Shown: positions 47,164 to 63,853 of the stretch, piece after piece
Layout: each line of letters starts with the position of its first letter
Position numbering within the stretch: position 1 is the stretch's first letter
Source: Vanrija pseudolonga
Lineage: Eukaryota; Basidiomycota; Tremellomycetes; Trichosporonales; Trichosporonaceae
Direction of reading: 5' to 3'
DNA: 64,000 nucleotides
Assembly: GCF_020906515.1 (NCBI RefSeq)
Contig: NC_085851.1
Location: 434,001-498,000 of the forward strand
The notes under the pieces: generated by a model
Seen by the model: the letters and a program-made list of their open reading frames with translations, nothing else
What the model was told of the DNA's origin: nothing
Databases searched by the model: none
Made by a program: the position numbers and the translations under genes

Positions 47164-49346
47164 CTAGTTCTTCTCATTCGAAGAAGGTGCGAAGGCGCCG
47201 GGTGGGAGGGTGCCCGCGCCCGAACCAGACGACTGCTCGTGGACGACATGGCCGTGCTGCTCCTCGACAGCGGCAGCGGCGGCGGACGAGCCTGCAGCAG
47301 TAGCAATCTCGGCTGGCTCCTCGGTCAACGGAGCAGCGGCACCACCGGCAGGGGCGCCGGCGGGCGGCTGTGCCCAGCTGGGGTCGTACGTGGGCGGGAG
47401 GGTCTCGATGACGGGCGCGGCGGGAGCGGGGGCCGAGCCGGTGTCGCGCTCGACAACGACCTGCGACTGCGGAAGCTCGGGCAGGCGGCGGCTCTTGCCG
47501 CTCGCGGCGGCCGCGGCGCTCGACGAGCCGCCGATGGACGTGATGTCGTCGTCGCTGAAGACTGAGCCGCCAGACTGCGACCGCGTGGGGTTGGACGGGT
47601 CGGGCGAGAGGTAGTTGGTGACGCCGGACACGGAGCTCTGGCGGCGGTCGTCGTATGCGGACGAGTATCCCGCCTGCGAGGACGACGACGAGAACTGGCG
47701 CTCGTAGCCCTGGTGCCCGAGCAGCGGCTGCGCGACGTCGCGGTCCGAGAAGCCCGACTGGGACGCCATGCGCTGCTTCTCGCTCAGGATGGGCGCCGCC
47801 GAGCCGCCCGTCTCGGACGTCGCGGCGCCCGCGTTGCTCGAGTAGTTGTCGTACGTCGCGTGCGTGCCCGACTCGGACGTGCGGCCCGTGTGGTGCATCG
47901 CGGCGGCGGCACCGGCTCCAGCGGCAGCAGCGCCGAGGGCCGCACCCGAGGCCACGAGGGCAGGGTTGTGCGTGTTGCCCGCTCCCGAGCCGGGGCTGAT
48001 GAACGGCGTCGCGGTGACGGCCTGGCCGTCCTCGATCTCAAACTTGTCGTTGTCAAAGTCGTTGCTGTGGGGTTGGTTAGTGGGACCCAGGGGCAGGGGG
48101 TGCGCATGCTGCTCACGTGTGGCGCTTCCTGCGGCGGAGGAAGAAGATGGCCGCGACGACGGCGGCGATGGCAGCGAGGCCGCCCACAACGCCGCCTACA
48201 ATGGCGCCAACGGGCGTCTTGGAGCCGCCACTGCTGGGCGTGTAGTTGATGGACGACGATGAGGGGGCGCCGGGGTGGGCGCCGCTGGCCGAGATGGCGG
48301 ACCAGAAGGACGTCGACGCGAGGCCGATCTTGTTGACGGGCGCGGTCCCGTCTGCGTCGGCCGAGATGGCGACGCTGTACGAGACGGCGGGGTCGAGCGC
48401 GCCCATGTACAGCACCGAGGGGGCCTGCCACGCGTTGTTGGTCACGGCGAGGTTGTAGTTGACGTCCTGGTACGGCGGGGGCGGCGTCCACACAATGTGC
48501 ACGACGCCCTGGTCGGGCCCGACGGTGCCGTTGAGCATGATGAACGACGTGTTGGCCGGCACGTTGAACGTGAGTCCGCTGCCGTTGCCGCCACGCAGGG
48601 TGGGGTACTGCGTTGGCTGCTGGCCGTTGGCGCCGCCGATAGACTGCGACACGTTCCAGGCTTGCGTGGTACCATCGACAGTGTAGAATGTGTTGCGGAG
48701 GCCGTTCTGGGAGACGAACGACTCGGTGCGGACGTTGACGTTTGATATGCTCTGGCTGTGGGCCATGTCAGCGGGGTGAGGTGGGTCCGGGGGTACATGA
48801 CCGCTGGCCGGAGCGCCACACTTACGCCTGGGAGTAGAAGCCATACTCGACCGTGAGGCCAGTGACGGATATGGACGGCCTCGCGTTCGCCTGGTTGGCC
48901 GTGTCGACGAGCGCCACCTGGATCTTGTGGTACCTGTAGTCGCCGGTCCCCATCGAGAGGATGGTGTTGGAGACTGCGTTGGCCGACTGCTGCTGCCCGT
49001 CCTGCGTGACGGCCAGGGCGCCATTGGAGGGGAGCGAGATCTGGCCCAGCAGGCCGTATCCCGTGCCGAGGAAGTTGAACGCCACGCCCGGGTTGTTGGT
49101 GTTGGTCGCGACGGCAGAGTGCTGGCTCATGCCGGCGCCCGTCTGGCCGGGCGCGTAGTTTGCCCAGTTGCTGTTGGCGTAGGACGTGTTCCACAGCGGC
49201 GTGCCCGTCCCGGCATTGTCGGGCGTGTACGTGATCACCGCGTCCATGTCGGTGAAGGTCCAGTTGAAGAAGAGGTTGGGCGAGGGCATGGCGCGGGCTG
49301 CGGGCGCGAGCGCCGCGAGCGCGATCAGCACAGACTGGAGCGCCAT
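47164..49346 (-). CDS. type I membrane protein, surface family paralogue E
   Basis: Signal peptide MALQSVLIALAALAPAARA. Extracellular lobe 1: LFFNWTFTDMDAVITYTPD, WNTSYANSNWANYAPGQTGAG, FNFLGTGYGLLGQISL. Lobe 2, after an intron near 48755-48825: NTSFIMLNGTVGPDQGVVHI and SVLYMGALDPAVSY. Transmembrane helix around VGAIVGGVVGGLAAIAAVVA followed by FFLRRRKR. The cytoplasmic tail (about 300 aa) has KFEIEDGQ then ATPFISP, a class I SH3-type ligand RRLPELP and a PPxY motif in ETLPPTYDPSW. The lobes show the sequence rhythm of a galactose-binding-like beta sandwich (I-Y...W...G...F-F-GTG); fold is inferred. Paralogue of A-D at 55.7-63.9 kb. Confidence 0.82.
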
Positions 49347-50785
49347 CGTCGTCGTCGGAGTCGTTATCGCAGTGTCGAAGCGGTCAGTGATGGCGAGGAG
49401 GAACAAAGATCTGTTGGGGAAGAGCACACATGTGCTGCCGCGGGGAGTAGGTCATATTGCTCCATTGCTCACTGGGCACGCACGTACGAGCCGCTGCATG
49501 CAGGAAAGCAGGAATGGCACGGGCGATGCAGCCCGAACACCTTGTCTTTCGGTTCAGCGCCGGAACCGCTGGTCGCTCCTGCCCACTGTCATGCCACTGG
49601 ATGCCGCTGGCTGGATCCAGCCAGCCTGAGCCGTAGCCAGACCGCACCCACTCAGTTCTCATCACTGCCCAGTGCCCAGTGCCCAGCAGTGCCTAGCTAG
49701 CGCTGCCGCGATCAGCGCCTTGCAGCGCATCGCGAGAGCGGCAAGGGGGTTGGGTGTTTGAGCATACAACGGAACGACAGGTGACCGCAATTGCAAGGCA
49801 GGCAGGTCAGAGGCCCCGCGGCCAACAAGGGCAAGTGACCCCACCGATCTCAGGGCGCGACTCACCGCCCGCGGCTCTGGTCCGCCGCCGTCAGCTCCCA
49901 TTTCAGACCACGGCTGGCCACGCTAGTTTCAGATAGGCTGCAGGTTAATTGTGGTCGGGCGGGTCCTGCAGGACTTGGCGGGCATGCATGCCCGTGAGAT
50001 CAGGTCAGCGGGGTGGGCTTGCTGGGTGTGGTGGGACTGCAGCCATCATTCAACAGCGCTGGCACGTTGTTTCTGCTGGCTTGGCACGGACACATGGGCA
50101 TTTCAGTCATGTTCACATCGTGTCAGGCTGGCTTCGGACACCGAGAGACACACTGGTGCAAATGCTGGTGTGCCGAAACGGCCGTTCGTCATGTTGTCTG
50201 CCTGGAGCTGTCGGGGCAGACATCGCTGCGGATGTGGGGAAGGGTGGGTTGGCGGCGGCGTACGACGCTAGTAATAGCACAACCCTAACGGCATTCCTCA
50301 ATCGAGTGCCGGACGGCTGCCCAGCCTCTGCCAGCTTGACGCACAGCCGCTCCCACCGCCATCCAATGTATACGGTGCACACGGCGGTGCGGTGCAGTCG
50401 CCGTCTACAGCCACCCCTGGCATATGCTTAGTGGCAGATGAGATGTGCCTCGAGTCGACCGACACACTTCCTTTCTATTCTTGTCGATCTGGTGCATAGG
50501 CACTCGTCTTGGAGCAAACGACGTACGATTCGAGGTGACTGCCTGGGCCTCATCCGCTGGCCACAGCTGGCCGCCTTTCAGCGGTGAACGGCGACCTGTG
50601 TCAGTGGGCAGTGTTCCACAATTACCTCGGTTCCCCACATCACTAGCGTTCCAGTGCGTCGTCCGACGTGCGTTATTCGCGCCTAGACACAGCCAAGCCG
50701 AAGGCTGCCGGTCTTGCCGAATGACGTCTTGCCCACACCGTTGGTCAAACTGCAATGACCTGCATACAAAACTTCATTTATGGTC
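49347..50785. other. intergenic region
   Basis: 1.44 kb with no convincing gene. Contains direct CAGTGCC-type repeats at 49668-49690. Paralogue E promoter lies at its left end; the transhydrogenase 3' end lies at its right. Confidence 0.35.
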
Positions 50786-53700
50786 TCAATGGGACGAACT
50801 TGAGATGGCTCTGTTGAGACCCTCGCACGTTGACCGCGCATCACCAAAGAGCATCTTGGTGTTGGGGTAGTAGAAGAGCGGATTGGGTACTTCAGCGTAC
50901 CCAGCCGCCATGCCGCGCTTCATCACCACCACGTTCTTTGCGTTCCATACTGACAGAACGGGCATGCCCGCGATTGGCGAGCCTGGCTCGAGGGCGATGG
51001 GGTTCACAGTGTCGTTGGCGCCAATGACGAGCACCACGTCCGTGGTCTTGAAGTCGTCGTTGATCTCGTCCATCTCGAGAACGACTAAGTGTCAGTGCTG
51101 TACCCGCGGCGGTTGACTCACGATCATAGGGCACACCAGCTTCGGCCAGGAGGACATTGCACTGGCCAGGCATGCGGCCAGCCACTGGGTGGATGCCGAA
51201 CCGCACCTGAACACCCTTTGCTCGCAGCGCGGCGACGATCTCGCCGATGGAGTACTGAGCCTTCGCGACGGCCATTCCGTAGCCTGGAACGATGACCACC
51301 GTCTCGGCGTTCTGCAGCATGTCCACCACTTCATCGACGCTCGTCTTGGTGACTTCGAGGCCCTTGGTCGAGTCTGCGGGCGTGTCAGTCGGCGTCTACC
51401 CACGCTACTCACCGCCAGTCGTAGTCGTCGTCGGGGCGATACCACCGAAGATAACATTCGCGAGGGACCGGTTCATGGCTTTGCACTGAGGATCAGCTTG
51501 GTCACGGCCTAGGACCCACCATGATGTAACTCAGAATGCTGCCACTGGCACCAATCAAGCTTCCCACACTGGTGAGCAGCATGTTATCCAGCATGAATCC
51601 TTCAGCGACCAGCGCGAAGCCCGAGTACGCGTTCAACACGGTGACAAGCACGGGCATGTCGGCACCGCCGATGGCTGCGCTGGTCGTGTAGCCACCGATG
51701 AAGGACAGAAGCGTGTTCCCAGCCAGACAAGCGGCTGCTATGGCAGGCGACGCTGGGCCGAGGGTCAGGAAAGCGCCAAACGTAGCCGTGTTCGCCGCGA
51801 GGAGCGAGGTGTTGATGAGATGGCGGCCTGGAAGGCGGAGCGGCTTCGATGACAATCTACCAGCGAGTTTGCCATAGGCGACCAGCGAGCCTGAATGTCA
51901 GTGCCCAAGACGTGCAGCAAACTCACCAGTGAAGGTAACGCCTCCAATGAGGACACCGAGGAACGCCGTGGTGAGGTACAGAGTGTTGACATCGCCGTGG
52001 GCGTGAGGGTCGAGCACACACGCAACGGACGTGAGGACAGCCGCGAGGCCGACGACACTATGCAGTGCAGCCACAGTCTGGGGCAGCGCCATGGGAGACA
52101 CACGGCGGCCGATCAGGAGCCCGGCACCACCACCAATCACCGTCAGCGCCGCGAGCTGGCCCAGCTGCTCCTTGGTGAAGTGCACTGATAGCACGGCGGT
52201 GAGCAAGCCGATGAAGACACCGAGAATGCCGAGGGTGTTGCCGAAGCGGGCGGTGGTCTGGGGTGAGCATGGACCAGAAGGACGCACGTACCTGTGAGCT
52301 CAGGCCAGTCAGTGCGCCAATGCTGAGGAACGTGGCGACCGTGTACCCGGCCGTGGTCAAGCCTGCCTCTCCAGTGGAGTAGGCCCACACGAGACCGGCC
52401 GCGAACAGAGCGGCGGGGGCGGCCCACAGCCAGCCATAGTCGGGAGGATCACCCGGGCGGCGGAAGAGGTCGAGCATGCGCTTGGTGATCAAGAAGCCGC
52501 CGAACACATCTGTGCGTGTGAGCCCTAGTTCCTTCGGGTGAACGTACTGAGATTGGCGAGGAGGACACTGGCGGCACCAAGCCACTGCGGCAACGTCTCG
52601 GGCATGAATCCGCCGCCGATGGCAAAGAGGCCGCCCACTCCGACAAGGCCCGAGAGTGCGTTCGTCACGGCTGGAAGGTGAGCGGTAGTAAGTGTATTGT
52701 CACCTACACATCAAAGGACTGTGAAGGGCGGGCGTGACGCGCCAGACGGCAGTGAAACCGGCAAGGCCAGCGAGACCCATGGTGCCGATGAGCGACATGA
52801 ACGCCGGGCTGGTGACCTTGCCGAGGGCGAGGGTCGAGCCGACGGCGACGGACGTGCCGGTGACCTGGCGGACGGCCTTCTGCCACGGGTTGATGGAGGC
52901 AATCTCCTCGGGCTTCGGGAGGGGCTTCTACATTGTCAGCTGGGACAGGCGGAGAGCACGCACGGGTGGAGCAGGCTTGGCGGGAGCGAGGGCGGGCTGG
53001 CGGATGATGGGCGGAGCAGGCCACATCAGTTTGCCTTGGTACGTGACGATGGAGCCGCGGACGACCTCATCCTCCAGGTCAATCTTGTACTCGCCCTTCC
53101 CTCCAATCGACAGGAAGAACTAACGTCAGCGAAGCTACCGGCAGGGCTCTCACCTTTGTGATGTTGTTCGAGTAGAGAGTGGAGCTTTGGGCAGGCAGAC
53201 GAGACGGGAGGTCCTGGGGTGGTTAGGTTGGGCTCCGTAGTGCGTCGTGTACCTACCGTGTAGCCAAGGATGGTGACACCATTCGGTGTGACGATCTTCT
53301 CGCCGGGCTTGGTCAGCTCGCAGTTGCCGCCCGCCTCGCCAGCGAGGTCGACGACAACGGAGCCAGCTGGGTGGGTTAGCAGCTGTCGGGATTGCCGACC
53401 CACGCTTCATGGCCGCAATGTGCTCCTTGGTAATCAGCTTGGGGGCAGGCTTTCCGGCTGTAATGGTTAGCAAGGGCGCCAGTGCCGTCAGCCTCACGGA
53501 TCAAGGCCGTCGTGACGATAATGTCGACATCAGCAGCCTGCTGGGCGAACAGTGCCATCTCTGCGTCGAGGAAAGCCTAGCGTCAGATCGTGCCCTATGC
53601 CCATCACCCACCTTGCTCATCTCCTTGGCGTATCCTCCCTGTCCGCTACCGTCCTCCTCAATGTCGACCGTGAGGAACTCGGCGCCGAGACTTTCGATTT

Positions 53701-54561
53701 GCTCCTTGACAACTGGACGCGTGTCGAAACCGCGCACAATCGCACCCATACGCTTAGCGGTGGTGATAGCCGAAAGACCAGCAACACCAGCTCCGATAAC
53801 CTCGGCATCAGCTCTACGCTAGGTCGCGATCAACTCACCAGAACCTTTGCCGGCGGGATCCGCCCCGCGGCCGTGGTTTGCCCGGTGAAGAAACGGCCAA
53901 ACTCGTTTGCGGCCTCGAGGACGGCCTTGTAGCCGGCCGTGTTGGCCATGCTGCTCAGCGCGTCAAACATCTGGGCACGCGAGATACGGGGTACGGCGTC
54001 CATTGCAAAGCTGGTGATATTGTGGTAGCGGAGTTCTTCAGTGAGGCCAGTGTTGACGCCAGGGTGGAGGAACGAGATGAGCGTCTGGCCAGAGTGCATC
54101 GCCTGCACTTGCGCCGACGTGGGAGGTCTGACCTTGAGGACGACATCCGAGTCGAACGCAGAGCCCTTGCCGATGCCCTCCTCTGACAAGGTGGCTCCAG
54201 CATCAACGTAGGCGGCGTCCGGAAAGTTGGCCGCCGCGCCAGTTCCGGGCTCGATGAGGACCTTCTTGAACCCGGCCTTGATGAGGGTCGCGACGCCCGC
54301 AGGGGTGAGCGCCGCGCGTGCTTCCTTGTCTGATGTCTCGCGCGGGACACCGACAGTGAGCGTGTCGTAGGGTACGCCTGGGCCCGGGGTTGGGAGTTGG
54401 GGTGCAGGTTGAGTTGGGGGGTCGACAATGGACGAGTTGAACCGAGCAATGACGTAACGCGCCTTCACGGCCGTTGTCCTTGTCGTTTTGGTCAAGAGGC
54501 CACCATGGTGATGGCGACCACTGCACGCCACGAGAGCGTTCAGCGATAGACGTAGCGACAT
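50786..54561 (-). CDS. NNT: mitochondrial NAD(P) transhydrogenase, proton-translocating
   Basis: Single-chain enzyme of the mitochondrial inner membrane that couples proton entry to NADPH formation from NADH. Order is standard: N-terminal mitochondrial presequence ([19 protein letters not shown]), dI NAD(H) domain ([38 protein letters not shown], and [32 protein letters not shown]), the [13 protein letters not shown] segment, a membrane part dII with about 13 helices ([20 protein letters not shown]-type, [18 protein letters not shown]), and a C-terminal dIII NADP(H) domain ([68 protein letters not shown]). A dozen short introns. Absent from S. cerevisiae, so a notable metabolic feature. Confidence 0.96.
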
Positions 54562-55678
54562 GGCCTGGGTGCTACTCCATCAGCTGTGCGAGATGTTTGA
54601 TGAAAGAATGGACAAAGGGAGGGAGAGGCGACAACGTTGAGTGATGATGCTGGGTGCGGCACGCGCCATGGGGACGGGGCAGGAGAGTGGGGTAACGATG
54701 CGGCGCCCAAAGGGACCCCACCCCACTCGCTGTTATCGGCTCAAGGTCCGACTCGACGGACGAGGTCAGATGATCACAAACGCGCAACTTGGCTCGACGC
54801 GCAACTCCCAAGCTGCATACGTCGACATGGAGCCAAGAATGCCATGGCGGCGCGCGGCGCAGCCATGCGGCGGTGCTTGGAACCGCGTGCAACACGGCAC
54901 GGCCGAAGTAAGTCGCGCACCCACGGCTGAAGCACGAGCACTCGAGCCCGCCGCCGTGCTCATTCATATGCTCATCGATAGACCGAGCGTTCAAGCCAGG
55001 TCCTACGAGGTATGAAAGGCCCACCTACCATGGTCATCGGGTTCCGCCGAAGTCGCTCATGACACGGACATCGACTTGGTGAAAGCACACACCGACACTG
55101 CGACTTCGCGGATGTCCCTCCATCCTCGGCGCCCCGCTCCGCATCACACTCCACTACAACCACACTGAACACGGTGCCGTTGGGTACGAGACGGCGACCC
55201 GCCGATCCGCAAGCGCGCGCGTTGCTCTCCTCCATCGCGGACTGATATCCGGGATGGCGGCCTCGGCGCCGAGCGATCGGAGTCGTTGCTGGGCCCCGCG
55301 TCGAGACCCTGCCGAAGCGCATCCAGCTCCATTCGGGCCTGTGATGAGCGAGGCATTAGTGTTAGGCGCTTGGGAGAACTGGAGGGCGAGCCGCTTGGTA
55401 CTACATATCTTCCTGTGGGTACACGGCGAGGCTGTTGACCACCGAAGCGGCTCAGGCGAACACGATCCGGGAATAGGCGCGCACCACAGGGCATGCTGTA
55501 GATAGTGATGAGGCCTACCTCGGTGCAAACGCACCGCCGACAGTCCGGAGCGTGGACGCTGCTCCATTAGCGTACTCGGCCGAGGACGACAAGCCTGCTG
55601 TACCCAGATGACACGCCAGCATCTCCATTTACATCTATGTTTCTCATCACATGGCTCCTATAACATACAGACCGCGTT
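54562..55678. promoter_or_regulatory. transhydrogenase upstream region
   Basis: 1.1 kb. No conserved coding sequence. Promoter of the transhydrogenase gene and 3' flank of paralogue A. Confidence 0.35.
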
Positions 55679-57264
55679 CTATCGTTGCGACGCGCCAGGT
55701 GGTAAGCTTGGACGCGCATTGCGAGAGCCAGAGCTTGATGATGCGGTGTCGAAATCTCGGCTCGGTCCGCCACTCGAACTGGGTCCAGACGACGAGCCAG
55801 CCACATCGAGGTAGCCGTTGTTCTGACGAACGGTGTCGTATGGGTGCCGAAGAGCCGCCTTCTCCTGCGATGCGGACGCGAAGGCCGTGGTCGTGCCGTG
55901 GCTCTGGGTGGCAGGGGCGGCGATGAAGGGCGTGGCCTGCATGTCTTCTGCCCTCTCAAAGCGGAGCGGGGAGGTGTGTTTCCTTGTCAATGTCAGCGGC
56001 TTCACTGGCAACTGCGCGGTACTTACCTGCGATGCGTGCGGATGGCCCAGAACCCAAGAATGGCCAGGAGGAGCACGCCAAGCACGCCACCGACGACGCC
56101 GCCGATGATCGCACCCTTGTTGACGTGCTTCTTCGGCGGCGTAATCTTGGCACCCTGGTGGTCAGTGGTGCCGAGGCCGCCAAATGCCTTGGTTGTGTCG
56201 TTGCCGATCCCGACACCAGAGTACAACGTCAGGCTGTGGAGCGAGACGGAGCTGTTGATGGCGGGCGCGAGAGTGAGGGTGTAGTTGAAGGTTGGGTCCA
56301 GCGGGGTGAAGTACAGGATTGACTTGGAGACCCACTTGTCCCGTGTCGTGATGTACGTGTACGACTTTGGCGTGAGTGGCGGCGGAGGCTGGATGTCGAC
56401 ATAGAGCTTGTCGTAGTCTGGACCTGTCGTACCGTTGAGGATGAGGAAGGTGGTGCTCGGCGGGAGCTTGGCCTTGAGGACTGCGTCGGTACCGCTGCTG
56501 ACAGCGTGGTCGTACGCGATCCGGTCCTGCCCTCCGACACCGCCAATGTGGTCCTCTACCTTCCATTCACCAGTCTTCTCGAACAGGGGATTGATGTTGC
56601 CGTTGGACACGAACGGCTCGACGCGGAGTGGCACTTGGTCCAAAGTCGCTCTTTGCAAGTCAGCGTGGCTTTCACCTCAACCCGGGTCGACCCACGCCTC
56701 GGCAATCATCCCAGTCATGACAGTGGCAGTGGTCAATGCCAACAACCCTCGCCTGGGTTCGAACATGATCGAATTGTAAGCGAATGACATGTTGTCGGTG
56801 CGGAACAGTGTGTCGTCGGCATACCGCGTAACGGCCTCGCGCTCGTGGTTGATGTACCACCCGATCGGAGCATCGAGCGCGGGGTCGGCGCCGGAAATGC
56901 CCGCGGAGTCCGGTGCCCACGTCGCATTCTGCCTACCGTGGACAGTTACGCCTCGGCCAACAAAGCTGAGAGTGGAGGCTTCAACGACGATGCGTGGGCC
57001 GCTGTCGGGCACCTCGACATAGTGCGCCGCTGCGCCAGGCCCCACCATCCCTGGGACGTAGGTGGCTGGAGCGTCTTGGAACGTTGTCGCCCACCACGAG
57101 TTTCCAGGCTCGGGGTTCGGCCGCCAGTTATCGGGGAAGTAGGTGAACATGGTCGAGGTGTCGCCCAGATCGAGGTCGAAGAGCACGTTGGGTCGATATG
57201 GTCGTGCCACGCCAGTCTGGGCCACTGACAGTAGTGCCACGCAGAGGACGTATAGCCGTGACAT
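55679..57264 (-). CDS. type I membrane protein, surface family paralogue A
   Basis: Signal peptide MSRLYVLCVALLSVAQTGVA. Lobe 1: VLFDLDLGDTSTMFTYFPD, YVPGMVGPGAAAHYVEV. Lobe 2, after one intron: EDHIGGVGGQDRIAYDHAV, TTFLILNGTTGPDYDKLYV, ILYFTPLDPTFNYTLTL, SLHSLTLYSGVG. Transmembrane helix GAIIGGVVGGVLGVLLLAIL, then FWAIRTHRR. A second intron (gtaagt...gacaag) leads to the tail: SPLRFERAED, then MQATPFIAAP, a Ser/Gly-rich stretch and the end SLPPGASQR. Closest to D, with which it shares nearly the whole VGGQDRIAYDHAV block. It is divergent from B across 425 bp. Function unknown; surface sensor or adhesin is inference. Confidence 0.85.
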
Positions 57265-57689
57265 GTTGCGTTGGAGTCTGGCTGCGCTGTTCGGTGGGTG
57301 GTTATGATTCCAACAAGTGTCGAGTGGAGCGCAATGAATGTTCTGTTCGCGTAGAGACTAACATACGAAGCCAACAATGCATGTTGCCTGCTGCGCGTGA
57401 CAATTAGGGTGCCAAGACTTCGGATGGCCTGGAGTCAGTCATACTGTAAGGTACCCGTCTCCGTCAAACCCAAGGGGACGGACATCTGACATGCCCTGAT
57501 GAAGTGGTGCATGATTGACCACCTGCAATATGCACATCCGCTCTGCTACGCTCCTCACCCTCACACAACGCGTGATTCATGTTGTGACTGAACTGTGTTC
57601 GCAATAATCCAAATCATATCAGGCGCAACGCAGCGCCTCGCCATCGACATCCCTCCAGCTCCTTTGAGCTCGTCGACATCCTCGACAAG
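57265..57689. promoter_or_regulatory. shared divergent promoter of paralogues A and B
   Basis: 425 bp between two divergent starts; the two paralogues could be co-regulated from here. No familiar box stands out. Confidence 0.45.
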
Positions 57690-59525
57690 ATGCTGTTCAC
57701 CTCTCTTGCTATATCCGGCGCACTTCTCAGCGGAGCGACAGCCCAGATCATCCCCGACGTCTTCTTCAACTTGACACTGCTGCCCGACTCTCCATATCTG
57801 AAATACGATCTGGACAATGGGAGGTCGAACGCCACTGGGTGGCACCTCGAGTACCTTGATGCCACGACCAGCAACGGCACTGGAACGGCCGCCGCGGCCC
57901 AGCCGCGAGTGTCCGCCTTCTACGACGACTCGAAGTATGTGATTGGAAACAGATCGAACCCCACAAACCCCTCACTTTTGATCGAGTATCCCGGCTATGG
58001 GTTCTACGCTCATGGGTCGTTCGACGGCGACAACTCCGGGAAAGGGCGGTTGAACTCGCAGTCTCCGCCCCTTGGCTCGCGGTTGACTGTGGGTGGTATC
58101 CTCAAGGAGCCAGACCCGTTATCAGGAGACGTGGTAGCGGGCACCGGTGTGTCGGGCTTCTTCTCCGATCAATCGGCTCGCCTCACTGTCGCGAACGGGA
58201 CGCTGATCCTGACTTCTGTCTCCGTGGTGGTAGGAATGGCGACCGACGCGTGAGTGCTTGGAGGTGTGCTCGCTGGGACTGATCTGAGCCCATAGGCCAA
58301 CATTCGACGACGTCGAGGTTTCTACAGTCCCCTTCATCATGGACGACAACACGCGCAATCCCGCTTTCACGTACTTCGAGACTAATTCCAGCTGGATCGT
58401 GTCGCAAACGATCCGCGGTGTAGGTGAGTGGCACCAGCGTCTTCTGTTCTGACCTTGAAATGTAGATGGCCGACCAGATATCCCGTACAAGACGCTCGAC
58501 TCTGGACCCCCCACGAATGGCGGCATTCTAGCCGACGTTCCAACTGTGCGGGTACCCATTCCTGCCAACACATCCTTTGTGCTCGTCAACGGTACCATTG
58601 GACCCACCCGCGGCCAACTATACAGGTCGCTTACTTCTGGTTTAGCCTACTCTGCGTCCGCAACCATCTACCCAATCAGGCTCAACCTCAGTTCGACTTA
58701 CGAGGCGCCAGCGATGATCTTCTATGCGCCGCTGGACCCGACACGTCTATACAACCTGACCTTAAGCCCCGATAGTCTGAGGAGCAGCTCGATCGCACTC
58801 CACAGTCTCACATTTTACTCTGGTCTCTGGTCAGTGCCCACCGCTGTTGAAATTTTCAGCGTCGCTGATGGCTATAGGAGTGGCACCTCAAAGGCGACGA
58901 GCAACGGCACAGATTCTGATCAAAACATTGCCCAATCAACTAAAGTTGGTGCTGGAGCCATCGCCGGAGGAGTAGTGGGAGGCGTTGTTGGCTTGCTCCT
59001 GCTAGGTGGCTTGGCGTTCTGGCTGTTCAGGACAAGGTGAGGGAGGGTATTAGAGGTGGCATACCGTGCGTCGCTAACATCGGTGAAGATCGACAGAGAG
59101 TAAGGAGGATAGGCAGTGGGCAGTTGATCCTGCCTTGGAGGAGTACCAGAAGCCTCCGTCCGCAAGCCAGACATCCGTCGGCCAAGGAAAGCCTCGTAAT
59201 CTAAGTGGCTCACCTCGCGCCGTGCTGACTGAATGCAGGGCATCCCGGCGCTGATCCAGTGCCTGTGGGCAACCAGACCTCTCTGTCGCAAGGTGCCGGC
59301 CCACAAACAACCGAGAGTGGAACGGCGGTTTCACCCACCAGGTCAGTCTTCCATTTGCTCTCGCGACAAAACGTGCTAACATGCCACAGCGAAACCGCCA
59401 CTAGCACGACCAAGGCGCCACGGGAGCTACCACCCATTCCTCATGCCACACCTGCGGGGGCACCGAATAACGACGTTGAGCTCCTGCCACCGACCTACAA
59501 GCCGGAATGGAGTGGGGGTCGATAG
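57690..59525 (+). CDS. type I membrane protein, surface family paralogue B
   Basis: Signal peptide MLFTSLAISGALLSGATA. Lobe 1: IIPDVFFNLTLLPDSPYLKY. Exons then join at DAPTFDDVEVSTVPFI and IRGVDGRPDIPYKTLD. Lobe 2: NTSFVLVNGTIGPTRGQLYR, MIFYAPLDPTRLYNLTL, ALHSLTFYSG. Transmembrane helix AGAIAGGVVGGVVGLLLLGG, then FWLFRTR. The tail runs over three more introns (one, 59205-59238, is only 34 nt) and ends with a class I SH3-type ligand RELPPIP and a PPxY motif in ELLPPTYKPEW. At least eleven NxS/T sequons outside. The joined frames were checked at each intron and agree with paralogues E and C. Confidence 0.85.
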
Positions 59526-60026
59526 ATTGCGAGTGGTGGACCTATTAGATTAGATGTGTGCAGCAGAGTGATGTACCTGTCCTCACCGGCCTTCAGTCAG
59601 GGGTCACAGCTCTATGAGCAACCATTGTACAACTATAGTATCTCTGCATGATCATCCATTACAACGATGCAAGAAGCTTCAGTGTTCCGGCCTCAGACGT
59701 CGCATGCACTGGTACTGGAACAACAGTGTTGCGGGCATGTAAAGCCGCAAACAACGCCAAGCAGGTACCGCCCTGAATGGAAATGCCCGTGTTTTGCGTC
59801 ATCTCTTCCGCTCAGTGTCAGGCGACGACCCACAAAACGCGGTCTCACTATCCTCAGCACCTCTACCCAGGACGTGACAGGTTTTGGATCCCGCGGAAAC
59901 AGGATGTGGAGAGAGAGCGGGCTCAAGGAGAGTCAGACGTGATACTCGCGTTCAATGTTGCTCCTCATCTTCGTTTTGCTACACCGATTGTCATCTTACA
60001 CGTCCCTCGGCTTTCTTCGAAACGAC
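59526..60026. promoter_or_regulatory. region between paralogues B and C
   Basis: 501 bp, 3' UTR of B and promoter of C. No further gene seen. Confidence 0.4.
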
Positions 60027-62117
60027 ATGACTCCCCTGTCAGCGTTGCTCAGGCTGCTGGTAGCCTGGGCCATGGCGCAGGTCGCTGCCGCCAGAACCGG
60101 GGCATCATTCACGCCGACGCTCTTCTTCAACTTCTCCGTGTCACCGCTGTCCCCATCACTGTCGTTCATCCCCGACCTGCAAACGAACACCTACGCAAAC
60201 ATCAGATCCTTGGCACCGTGGAATACGACGTTCTCAGACTCGCCGTGGTCAAGCTACGTCCCTGGTCAAGTCGGGGTTGGCAGACCCCAAACCTTTATCC
60301 GCGGTCCTGTCAATGGCGGACCGCTCGAGGTCGACTACACCGGCACTGGCTTGTATTTTGAGGGAGAGTTCGAGTTGTTCAACCGAACAGCGACAGAAAT
60401 TATGGTATCAATCTACGGCGACAGGCCCAACGACGACGTTGCAATAGGCGCCGAGGGGTTAACTACCTTCCACAAGGGGGTCGGAAGCCTCCCGTTCGCC
60501 AACCAGGTTGGTGGTATCGTCGTCTCAGGCGTCTACAACGCCTCACAGACAACATACCTCGCGCTAGATACGGTCACATTTGGCACAGGTATACGAACGA
60601 ACGCGTGAGTGCAGAGCGGAGTTGGGCGGAGCTCACTTCATCTAGTACGACACTGGCAGATGTGCAAACAAAAGTCGAGTATGCCATCGTTGACAGCGAT
60701 TCTGGCCCTGGCCTGAACAAGAACCTCTTGTGGCAGCAGGGAGGTGAACCGCCAAACCAATGGCAGGTCTCGACGGAACTGAACGGTGGTACGTCCAAGA
60801 GCATTACCACTCAGACGACAGAACTAACCTTCTACCAGTTGACCAGGCGTCCACCCCGTACTCTGGCCGACGTACTGCTGTCACCACGGATATTACGGAC
60901 AAGTTTGGGATGTACATCCCTCGTGGCACCGCCTTCATCGTCGTCAACGGAACCACTGGTCCAACCAAGGGCGTGGCGCAGGTCGTCCTTAAGCCGGACA
61001 ACAGCGTGGCGACGTTTAGGGAGGCAGTGCTCACCAACCCGTGGATCTCTGTCGAGACCATCTTTTGGGCACCCCTCGACCCATCTGTGCAGTACAACAT
61101 GAGCATTGTTCCTCTAGTTGGGCTGTCGAACAAAACGAGTGGAACGTATTCCAATGGTGTCGGCCTCCATAGTGTGACGCTATACGCCGCAGGGTGAGTG
61201 CTACCGGCGTTCGGCGATCTGACGTTCCAGCGATGTTCCAGATTCTAAAGCCTCAGATGGCAGCACGCCTGGTGCTCAAGGCGGACACGGCAAGTCCAAC
61301 AACACGGGAGCAATCGCTGGCGGTGTCGTCGGCGGCGTGGTCGCCCTGGCGGTCATTGCAGGTCTCGTCTGGTTCCTCCGCAGGAGGAAGCAGAACGATA
61401 GCAAGGACAAGTTCCACATCGAGGAGCCTCCGCCCGAGTATAAGAATGGTGCGTGTTCACGATTCGCATGCTGACTGAATAGTGAACGATGGTGGATACA
61501 CCAACGCGGTTCTGTCGACCTCTGCACCAGCGACTACCCCACTGATTCCTACAACCAACTCGGACGGCTCCTCCACTCCGACCTCTCAAGTGCCGCAGGT
61601 CACACATGCCGTCGACAGTCATGACGCTCCCCTCCAACCTGCCGTAATGCACGCCGTTGACAGCGAGGACGTCCAGGCCATTCACGCGCTCGACAGCGAG
61701 GACGTCCAAGCCGTGCATGCCCTCGACAGCGAAGACATTCCAGCAGGGAGCGTCCGACCACTTCCGTCTGTTCCTGGCTCTTCGAGCTCTCCCACCGACT
61801 CTTCCAAGGTCGTGACAATGCCGCAATACAAGCTTGACGCTCTGCTTGGTATTCGGCCGGGTGATCGCAGTGGCAAGGCCGCGAGCAGCATGGTCCGAGT
61901 CCCACAAGAGAAGCTTGACCTGCTGTCCAACATTCGCGCGCCTGAACCTGGACCTTCCGACGGTGTGGTCTCGATGCCGCAACACAAGCTTGAGGCTCTT
62001 CTGGGGATGATGCCGTCGGCCAACGAGGCCGACACTGTTCTGTCTCTCCCTCAGTATAAGCTTGACGCTCTGATGGCCATTTCCGCAGAGAGACCGCCCC
62101 CAAGTTATTACGGTTAG
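60027..62117 (+). CDS. type I membrane protein, surface family paralogue C, repeat-bearing tail
   Basis: Signal peptide MTPLSALLRLLVAWAMAQVA (an earlier in-frame ATG at 59955 would only add a longer leader). Lobe 1: FFNFSVSPLSPSLSFIPD, WSSYVPGQVGVGR. Introns join ATTLADVQTKVEYA and GVDQASTPYSG. Lobe 2: TAFIVVNGTTGPTKGVAQVV, IFWAPLDPSVQYNMSI, GLHSVTLYAAG. Transmembrane helix AIAGGVVGGVVALAVIAGL, then WFLRRRKQ. Juxtamembrane FHIEEPPPEYKN, and a 34-nt intron (61449-61482). The tail has four HA[VL]DS[EH]D units, a class I SH3-type ligand RPLPSVP, four units of the form [VL]xxPQxKLxxLxxI and a final PPPSYYG. It has PPxY-type sequence at two places (PPEY, PPSY). Confidence 0.86.
61605..62082 (+). 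repeat. two sets of short tandem peptide repeats in the tail of paralogue C
   Basis: Set 1 (from 61605): HAVDSHD, HAVDSED, HALDSED, HALDSED, the last three in 11-12 aa spacing. Set 2 (from 61813): VVTMPQYKLDALLGI, VRVPQEKLDLLSNI, VSMPQHKLEALLGM, LSLPQYKLDALMAI. Each set-2 unit keeps the sequence AAGCTTGA in DNA. Confidence 0.9.
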
Positions 62118-62202
62118 CGGTCGTGGCCGAATTACTGTACGGCCCCAGTGTCAATCGTGTGTTTTTGTACACATTTTACATGAATGTATCTCGTAAGGAC
62201 AG

Positions 62203-63853
62203 CTATCTCGGTGCAGCTCCCGGTGGCAAGACAGATGCGCCAGCACTACTCTTCGACGACGCACCGGGCGACTGACGTAGAACTGGCCGCCCTAGAATGG
62301 CGGCTTTGTGCTCTGACAACGCCGAGTGATTTGCTGGAGGGTCTGGTGTCGCAACCGGTGTCGCAACCACAGCTGCTCGATTCAAGCCACGGGTGGAGCT
62401 AGCTTCTGATGCTGATGGCGTCTCACCTGCCGCGAGGCTGGTCTCTGCGTACCCATGCCCAGCGCGCCCGTGATTGTCAGGCGAATCATAGAGCGCAGCC
62501 TTTTCTGTCCCCGGCGATATGCGTAGCGGATAGCTGCCTGCTGGCGTGATGAAGGGAGTCGCGGCTGCGTCGTCTGCACGATCGAAGCGCAGGGGCGCGC
62601 GTTTGTTCCTATCGATGGTCAACACACAATGCCGACTGCACGTCATATGCAGCTGCGTACCTTATGTGCGGGGGACCAAAATCCGCCGACGAGCAGCAGG
62701 GCCAAACCGAGTACACCACCAACCACGCCTCCTGCAATGGCGCCAGTGTTGGTTGAATGGTGCTGCTCACCAGTGCCGAAGCCATCGAATGCAGTCGCGT
62801 TGTTCTTCCCGATACCGACACCCGAGTACAGTGTGATGCTATGCAGGGCGACTGAGCTGTTGAGGGCCGGTGCCATGCTGAGATTGTACACCACCCTGGG
62901 GTCCAATGGCATCGCGTACACGATCGAGTCTGACACCCACTTGTTCCTCGTCGTAACCCAGGCGAACGAAGCCGGGTTCAATGGTGGCGCCGGTGAAATG
63001 TTGATGTACAGTTTGTCGTATGTCGGGCCAGTCGTTCCGTTGATGATGATGTAGGATGTCCTGGGAGGCAGAGTGACGGAGAGCTCGGCGCCAGTGTTGG
63101 AGGAGCCAACGGCGTGGTCGTAGGCGATTCTGTCTTGCCCCCCAACTCCACCAATGTGATCGGAGACTGTCCACTTGCCCTTGTGGGTGAAGAAGGGGTT
63201 GATCTTGCCTTTGGAGGCGACGGACTCGACGCGTGTAGGCACGTTGTCGATGCTTGTTCTGAGGGAGTCAGGGTCATAATCTCGATACTTTTGCAAGCAA
63301 GTCAGACTTACGCCTCGGCGACCATGCCAGTCATTATCGTAACCGCACCCAGTGACCAGCTTCCAAATTCAAGGGCCATCCATATCTTCTGATATCCGAA
63401 TGGAAGTGTGGAGTTCTGCACAAGGATATCATTGGTCGGTGGAGTGAGCCGCAAAACGTAGTTGTTGACGGTGCAAACCCATGGAAGGAGGGGGTTCACG
63501 TCGGAAGATGCTGGGGTCCAGTCTCCAGTCACACTTCCACGGACAACAAACCCCGATCCGACGAAATTGAAGCGCCCGACCACAGGCGTGAAACGGAACT
63601 TGGATACCATGTACGAGTTGTGGAGAGCGCTTCCTTTGCCAACCATGCCCTCGACGTATGATGAGGGTGTTTCCGAGAAAGTCGTGTTCCACGAGGCCCT
63701 CTCGGGTGGTAGGTTGAAGTCGGGAACATATGTTACCGCAGAGCTCATGTCGCCGAGGTCCAGATTGAATAGGAGGGTCGGCTCAAACACCCTGGCAGCT
63801 GCCGAGGTGACCAGCAGCGTTGCTAGCAGTGAGCGCCACATTCCTGCCATCAT
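62203..63853 (-). CDS. type I membrane protein, surface family paralogue D, possible frame slip
   Basis: Signal peptide MMAGMWRSLLATLLVTSAAA (63853; earlier ATG codons at 63883 and 63925 are alternatives). Lobe 1: LLFNLDLGDMSSAVTYVPD, WNTTFSETPSSYVEGMVGKG. Lobe 2: SDHIGGVGGQDRIAYDHAV, TSYIIINGTTGPTYDKLYI, IVYAMPLDPRVVYNLSM, ALHSITLYSGVG. Transmembrane helix GAIAGGVVGGVLGLALLLVG, then FWSPAHK. The tail exon holds APLRFDRADD then AATPFITPAG and ends VLPPGAAPR, like A. The exon before it ends in phase 0 while the tail exon needs phase 2; one base too many in a run of five Cs right after FWS would explain it. Either a recent frameshift or a sequence error. Confidence 0.78.

What the first reader, a model, noticed from the sequence alone, without database searches (positions are those of the whole stretch)
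47164..63853. Five-member family of two-lobed surface receptors, four in one cluster
E, A, B, C and D all have a signal peptide, an extracellular region ending in shared motifs (NGTxGP, LDPxxxY, LHS-TLY/FY in four of five), a GAI-GGVVGG helix and different tails. A-D lie side by side in a head-to-head, tandem and tail-to-tail order with no other gene between. The outer regions have diverged much more than the motifs, as seen in adhesin or receptor families under diversifying selection. I know no name for this family.
Basis: partly seen in the sequence, partly recalled or inferred. Interest (0 to 1): 0.85.

Follow-up and report, generated by a model that had tools for sequence, protein, structure and literature searches.

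The report
Large two-lobed fungal surface-receptor family
These genes belong to a family of about fifty proteins, probably on the surface of a soil yeast, with outer parts shaped like sugar-binding domains; many share a tail tag that in other organisms calls the cell's protein-recycling machinery.

Summary
The five genes are real and related, but "five" is a large undercount. The window lies in Vanrija pseudolonga (Trichosporonales). A-D are the first four genes of a nine-gene array made of three tandem copies of a three-gene module: A-B-C, D-B2-C2, D2-B3-C3. At least 49 loci in the genome match the second lobe. The modelled proteins have a hydrophobic N-terminus, two predicted CBM/galactose-binding-like jelly-roll lobes, a glycine-zipper membrane helix and a tail. 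New here: an extended PY motif, PPxYxPxW, lies 0.7-1.4 kb downstream of lobe 2 at 29 of 49 loci, against 0.10 expected. The genome encodes a WWx3-HECT (Rsp5/Nedd4-type) ubiquitin ligase, the usual reader of PPxY. Most likely these are surface receptors whose tails engage Rsp5; Rsp5 binding, glycan binding and surface location are inferred. No Pfam family covers the ectodomains. Diversifying selection is not shown: synonymous sites between paralogues are saturated. I found no name for the family in the searches listed.

The parts
47164..49346 (-). Gene E (public LOC62_03G003731, P0015): exons 49346-48826, 48755-48117, 48064-47164; 686 aa; single gene outside the array
   Evidence: Splice model with given start and stop; public protein is the same but starts at residue 20; AF2 two lobes, TM helix and disordered tail
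48134..48208 (-). E transmembrane segment GAIVGGVVGG...
47374..47397 (-). E tail motif PPTYDPSW (PPxYxPxW)
55679..57264 (-). Gene A (module 1, A/D type): exons 57264-56696, 56650-56027, 55982-55679; 498 aa; tail without PPxY, ends SLPPGASQR
   Evidence: V. albida relative P0003 74% identical
56041..56115 (-). A transmembrane segment GAIIGGVVGG...
57690..59525 (+). Gene B (module 1, B type): exons 57690-58249, 58296-58423, 58466-59036, 59089-59195, 59239-59525; 550 aa
58954..58982 (+). B glycine-zipper start of the TM helix (GAIAGGVVGG)
59487..59510 (+). B tail motif PPTYKPEW
60027..62117 (+). Gene C (module 1, C type): exons 60027-60604, 60646-60788, 60839-61193, 61231-61448, 61531-62117 (last intron uncertain); 626 aa
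61307..61335 (+). C glycine-zipper start of the TM helix
62097..62108 (+). C C-terminal PPxY (PPSY in PPPSYYG-stop)
62203..63850 (-). Gene D (module 2, A/D type; public LOC62_03G003734, P0016, starts upstream at MSTSRR and ends before the TM): exons 63850-63312, 63258-62677, 62608-62203; the second donor is non-consensus (GTCCCC), so the TM-tail junction is uncertain
   Evidence: AF2 model
62716..62744 (-). D glycine-zipper start of the TM helix
64000..64000 (.). Marker only: the array continues beyond the window as B2 (+, 64207-65912), C2 (+, 66252-68391), D2 (-, 70162-68515, LOC62_03G003735), B3 (+, 70670-72486), C3 (+, 72906-75054), in window-extended coordinates (C3 contig minus 434000)
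   Evidence: L009, L010

Best explanation
A lineage-expanded family of type I single-pass surface proteins. Shown by sequence: hydrophobic N-terminus, glycine-zipper TM and a tail that in E, B and C types carries PPxY, often extended to PPxYxPxW. Shown by prediction for D and E: two CBM/galactose-binding-like jelly-roll lobes outside. Inferred: the lobes bind a carbohydrate or glycoprotein ligand at the cell surface; the TM glycine zipper allows pairing; the PY motif docks a WW domain, most likely of the Rsp5-type ligase at C3:1.2025-1.2042 Mb, so that ligand state controls ubiquitination, endocytosis and vacuolar sorting of the receptor. A/D-type proteins lack PPxY and may act as non-internalised partners of the B and C proteins encoded beside them. 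The window's cluster arose by two tandem duplications of a three-gene A-B-C module.
For: Two-lobed fold. Family-wide tail motif: 29 of 49 loci, 0.10 expected, 29 of the genome's 42 sites; reversed-pattern control 7 sites. Seven of those 29 had been seen before the pattern was written, leaving 22 of 42 independent loci. PPxY in 11 of 16 tails against 0.77 expected in shuffles. Motif kept in Cutaneotrichosporon relatives P0005/P0006 and in V. albida P0017. Three WW domains and a HECT domain in one 720-aa frame. Rsp5 WW domains read PPXY or LPXY (PMC2810449, passages). Three clades matching the three module positions: A/D/D2 100/99, B 98/97, C 100/99 (the tool warns of long branches, among them B and B3).
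Against: No experiment shows surface location, ligand or WW binding. 20 of 49 loci lack the motif, among them all 7 in the C6 cluster, all 3 A/D types and all 3 C types of the array; the C types have plain PPxY, the rest are not resolved. A galactose-binding-like fold does not imply sugar binding. Tails have few lysines (2-9). Models of B2, C2, B3, C3 and D2 were steered by homology anchors.
Confidence: 0.5

Rival explanations
1. They are transmembrane Rsp5 adaptors, like Rcr1/Rcr2 in yeast or Commissureless/PRRG4 in animals: the ectodomain or TM picks a cargo membrane protein and the PY tail brings the ligase to it. The family's diversity then mirrors diverse cargoes, not diverse outside ligands.
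For: Same layout of a single-pass protein with a cytosolic PY motif as Comm, Rcr1/2 and PRRG4 (PMC5578492, passages; PMC2810449, passages); extended PY motif conserved among tails that otherwise differ.
Against: Large two-lobed ectodomain with 6-13 N-glycosylation sequons is unlike the short outer parts of those adaptors; tandem-cluster expansion to about 50 is more typical of recognition repertoires (general knowledge).
Confidence: 0.25
2. They are cell-wall sensors or adhesins of the Wsc/Mid2 working type: the lobes hold wall glucans or mannans and the tail signals wall stress; the PY motif only sets turnover.
For: CBM-like lobes, low-confidence linker before the TM in E, automatic database names 'Mid2 domain' and 'Dystroglycan-type cadherin' on relatives.
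Against: No Mid2 or WSC Pfam hit at E up to 10 in 14 of 14 members; no long Ser/Thr-rich rod of the Mid2 kind (inspection); family size is far beyond the few sensors known in yeasts (recalled).
Confidence: 0.17
3. They are a self/non-self or microbe-recognition repertoire, expanded in tandem and diverging fast in the outer lobe.
For: At least 49 loci, mostly in clusters on C1, C2, C3, C4, C6; lobe 1 diverges faster than lobe 2 in 9 of 9 pairs.
Against: No population data; the A-type gene is 74% identical in V. albida, so that copy is not turning over fast; dN below dS wherever dS is defined.
Confidence: 0.08

Closest known systems
Tandem CBM / galactose-binding-like modules (CBM22-CBM22, CBM51-CBM51, CBM35, CBM36, CE2 N-terminal domain PF17996)
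   Same: Fold of each lobe and two-in-tandem layout
   Different: 4-15% identity in the VIA rows, no Pfam match to the ectodomain, no catalytic partner, membrane-anchored with a long tail
Kwoniella two-lobed membrane protein IAT40_007887 (P0009) and its kind
   Same: Two lobes by inspection, CE2_N match (E 5e-7, best stretch 190-266), same GAIAGGVVGG TM, tail with PPxY (SPPPDYH)
   Different: Ectodomain relation only hinted: ectodomain-only profile E 0.0085, probability 4.7%, against E 0.15 or more in 9 controls; the 98.5% is mostly the TM. V. pseudolonga has one weak match to its ectodomain (E 0.013, C2:1561837), with a TM-like match just downstream (C2:1562089, E 9e-4), so perhaps a single gene of that kind
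Rcr1/Rcr2, Commissureless, PRRG4 (PY-motif single-pass proteins)
   Same: Single TM and cytosolic PY motif (PMC5578492, passages)
   Different: Short outer parts; no sequence relation tested
Plant malectin-like receptor kinases
   Same: Tandem carbohydrate-binding-like lobes outside and one TM (tandem malectin-like domain: PMC7783096, start of abstract in a listing; the rest recalled)
   Different: No kinase seen in the tails; no malectin Pfam match

Membership tests
Galactose-binding-like / CBM superfamily (fold level) | Beta jelly-roll domain with significant structural similarity | tested here: met
Carbohydrate-binding module (function) | Binds a carbohydrate | not testable with these tools
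   needs glycan arrays
CE2_N (PF17996) | Sequence match to the Pfam profile above its cut-off | tested here: not met
   0 of 14 members at E up to 10; P0009 of Kwoniella does match
Mid2 / WSC cell-wall sensors | Mid2 or WSC profile match | tested here: not met
   0 of 14 members at E up to 10; HMMER filters drop most weak matches
Malectin / malectin-like | Malectin profile match | tested here: not met
   0 of 14 members; a fold-level relation is not excluded
Peptidase A1 (name given to P0001 and P0011 by UniRef) | Aspartic-protease profile match | tested here: not met
   No such hit in 14 of 14 members
PY-motif membrane proteins acting through Rsp5/Nedd4 | Single TM with a cytosolic PPxY | tested here: met
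   11 of 16 proteins (E, B and C types, relatives); not met by A, D, D2, P0003, P0004. Cytosolic side is inferred from topology
PY-motif membrane proteins acting through Rsp5/Nedd4 | Physical binding to a WW domain of the ligase | not testable with these tools
   ligase gene present; binding unmeasured

The most novel reading that the evidence does not exclude
A fungal recognition repertoire of about 50 two-lobed lectin-fold receptors, diversified outside and wired inside to one common output, the Rsp5 ubiquitin ligase, through a family-wide PPxYxPxW docking peptide: many eyes, one endocytic switch. The three-gene modules would encode matched sets, a PY-less A type with two PY-bearing partners.
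Probability: 0.25. Interest if true: 0.75.

Novelty: new variant of a known kind. Interest (0 to 1): 0.52.

Why it matters
Few large receptor-like families other than GPCRs and histidine kinases are described in yeasts (recalled). Here is one of at least 49 loci with no Pfam match apart from generic membrane-helix models, at least partly truncated in the public annotation, and with a tail signature that makes a direct, cheap prediction (binding to Rsp5 WW domains). If borne out, it gives a way to find such families in other basidiomycetes by tail motif when the outer parts have diverged beyond recognition.

Tried and rejected
Pfam and NCBIfam scans gave only membrane-helix look-alikes, chiefly TM_ErbB1 in 12 of 14 members, best E 2e-5. 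PDB sequence profile: the best 48 rows match the TM stretch, such as APP and EphA2. The high profile score to P0009 was set aside as mostly TM-driven after an ectodomain-only test: P0009 E 0.0085, against 0.15 and 0.30 for two unrelated ectodomains, 0.23-0.93 for six shuffles and 0.15 for the reversed sequence. 'Peptidase A1' names rejected. Shared promoter element in the three divergent intergenic stretches or the three B-to-C ones: one shared 8-mer each and no 9-mer; the two-sequence alignment was uninformative and one stretch was cut by the window's end. dN/dS: saturated, and run before the retained introns in the B2 and C3 models were taken out (corrections). Protein searches: relatives matching well beyond the TM came only from Vanrija, a Vanrija-like metagenome contig and Cutaneotrichosporon; other rows (Aspergillus, Kwoniella, Ceratobasidium, Phialophora, Rhexocercosporidium, Colletotrichum, two metagenome records) had E from 3.6e-4 to 0.37 and, where an alignment was given, covered 3-13% of the query. 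Each search scored only about 8,000 candidates; one search missed E, and one search missed proteins that were in its own alignment (P0005, P0006), so absence elsewhere is not shown. Literature: searches for Vanrija pseudolonga, PPxY/Rsp5/WW, Trichosporonales/Vanrija surface proteins, basidiomycete galactose-binding PPxY, PY adaptors, malectin fungal, Vanrija gene families and the locus tags showed no paper on this family among the rows listed (6 to 15 of up to 2,056 per search; titles and starts of abstracts only). PMC12820176 was searched for six terms and names the genome only under data availability. Only the open-licence PMC library was searched.
Full report
WHAT THE WINDOW IS. The window is contig C3 434001-498000 of a 24.87-Mb, nine-contig genome. 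Public proteins on a contig of the same length (4,264,791) identify it as Vanrija pseudolonga, Trichosporonales. E is LOC62_03G003731, D is LOC62_03G003734 and the next A/D-type gene beyond the window, here D2, is LOC62_03G003735.

GENE MODELS. A simple splice search between given start and stop codons, without homology guidance, gave E, A, B and C; C's intron before the TM was then moved by anchors. D needed a hand choice: the best-scoring model skips the TM, while the one that keeps TM and tail in frame uses a GTCCCC donor. B2, C2, D2, B3 and C3 beyond the window were modelled with anchors at conserved motifs. The intron between the two lobes is in phase 2 in 10 of 10 models; B and C types have a further phase-1 intron inside lobe 2 in 6 of 6, and A, D, D2 and E in 0 of 4. 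For the anchored models this is partly by construction.

THE ARRAY. Three genes recur in fixed order and orientation: A-type (-), B-type (+), C-type (+). From the window's 55.7 kb to the equivalent of 75.1 kb the order is A, B, C, D, B2, C2, D2, B3, C3. A maximum-likelihood tree of 17 ectodomain rows groups A/D/D2 (with Vanrija albida P0003 and metagenome P0002, P0004) at 100/99, B/B2/B3 at 98/97 and C/C2/C3 at 100/99; the tool warns that E, B and B3 sit on long branches, so the order among the groups should not be leaned on. The 'head-to-head, tandem, tail-to-tail' order is thus one and a third copies of a triplicated three-gene module. The duplications are old: A-type copies share 38-41% identity in lobe 1 and 53-60% in lobe 2, while A and its V. 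albida relative share 74%. P0002 (close to D2) and P0004 (close to A) are both listed with a longest contig of 18,975 bases, probably the same one, so the array seems to exist in a second Vanrija.

FAMILY SIZE. Searches of the own genome with the E, C, B3 and P0007 ectodomains give 48 places matching E's second lobe at E up to 1 (47 at 0.01, 42 at 0.001), plus one at C5:2.34 Mb (E 6.5e-4): 49 loci, a lower bound by the tool's own warning. The weakest (C1:170901, E 0.60) has the tail motif 1.3 kb downstream. They lie on C1 (13), C2 (5), C3 (12), C4 (9), C5 (2), C6 (7) and C7 (1), mostly in clusters.

THE TAIL MOTIF. E, B and C types carry PPxY: 11 of 16 tails against 0.77 expected in 2,000 shuffles each. 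In E, B, B2, B3, P0005, P0006, P0007 and P0017 it is PPxYxPxW. The corresponding degenerate codon pattern has 42 sites in the genome, against 7 for the reversed pattern. Of 49 lobe-2 loci, 29 have a site 703-1,424 bases downstream on the same strand; random placement gives 0.10. Seven of the 29 were known when I wrote the pattern, so the independent count is 22 of 42. Of 30 fetched loci (L015-L044, overlapping for several genes) 25 contain the motif in a frame; 11 of the 30, from 8 different genes, also match my TM expression upstream, so the motif is kept where the TM has changed. A, D, D2, P0003 and P0004 lack PPxY and end LPPGA(S/A)xR.

THE LIKELY READER. One 720-aa frame at C3:1202489-1204192 holds three WW domains (E 1.4e-13, 7.9e-12, 1.3e-9) and a HECT domain (E 1.3e-97): the Rsp5/Nedd4 layout. 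Six further WW places pass the cut-off elsewhere, so other readers are possible. In yeast Rsp5's three WW domains recognise PPXY or LPXY, and membrane proteins such as Bsd2, Tre1/2, Ear1, Ssh4 and possibly Rcr1/2 act as its adaptors (PMC2810449, passages). Rcr1/2, Commissureless and PRRG4 are single-pass proteins with cytosolic PY motifs that change the surface level of other proteins; Comm's extended PY motif matters for function while conservation outside the motifs is low (PMC5578492, passages). That pattern resembles the Vanrija tails. The same paper notes that Nedd4 or Rsp5 binding is not needed for every function of Comm and Rcr1, which is a caution here.

SELECTION. In 9 of 9 within-type pairs dN is higher in lobe 1 than in lobe 2, but dS is undefined in 8 of 36 cells and above 1.5 in 21 of the other 28; all 28 have dN below dS (on models in which B2 and C3 still kept one intron).

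KNOWN OR NOT. No Pfam or NCBIfam family covers the ectodomain. Outside Vanrija, relatives matching over half or more of the query were found in Cutaneotrichosporon only (P0005, P0006; 56% of the query), by searches with poor recall. A Kwoniella protein, P0009, shares the plan and has a CE2_N match; ectodomain homology to it is only hinted, and V. pseudolonga has one weak match to it with a TM-like match just downstream. Eight literature searches listed no paper on this family among the rows shown.

ANNOTATION. The public E lacks the first 19 residues, hence the likely signal peptide, and the public D stops before the TM. Tags 003731 (E), 003734 (D) and 003735 (D2) leave two numbers for the transhydrogenase, A, B and C, and none for B2 and C2, so several + strand members appear to be unannotated or merged; this is an inference from numbering, not checked in the record.

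Noticed in passing
window 50786-54579 (-): An NAD(P) transhydrogenase gene (AlaDh_PNT_N and PNTB matches in 4 of 4 frames scanned) lies between E and the array.
   Followed up: yes
C, C2, C3 tails (window 61531-62117 and L009/L010): C-type tails carry 3, 3 and 4 imperfect copies of a VSMPQYKLDALL-like segment; C and C3 also have two and three HALDSED-like copies, C2 none by the same expression. Function unknown.
   Followed up: partly
A, D, D2 and V. albida P0003, metagenome P0004: A-type tails share a juxtamembrane PLRFxRAxxxxATPFI segment and the C-terminus LPPGA(S/A)xR in 5 of 5.
   Followed up: partly
G000 C6:267-295 kb: A cluster of 7 lobe-2 loci without any PPxYxPxW site within 2.5 kb: a PY-less branch or a different tail.
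   Followed up: no
G000 C2:4306132, C3:1027917, C3:2705475, C3:4122022, C5:912196 among 13 sites: 13 of 42 PPxYxPxW sites have no lobe-2 match nearby; some, such as C3:4122022 and C2:4306132, sit beside family members and may mark further, more diverged ones.
   Followed up: no
G000 C3:1202489-1204192 (-): Rsp5/Nedd4-type ORF with three WW domains and HECT.
   Followed up: yes
G000 C2:1561837-1562277 (+): Weak match to the Kwoniella P0009 ectodomain (E 0.013) followed by a TM-like match (E 9e-4): perhaps one Kwoniella-type two-lobed gene.
   Followed up: no
P0015, P0016, P0003: Public protein models appear truncated: E and V. albida P0003 start after the likely signal peptide, D ends before the TM.
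   Followed up: partly
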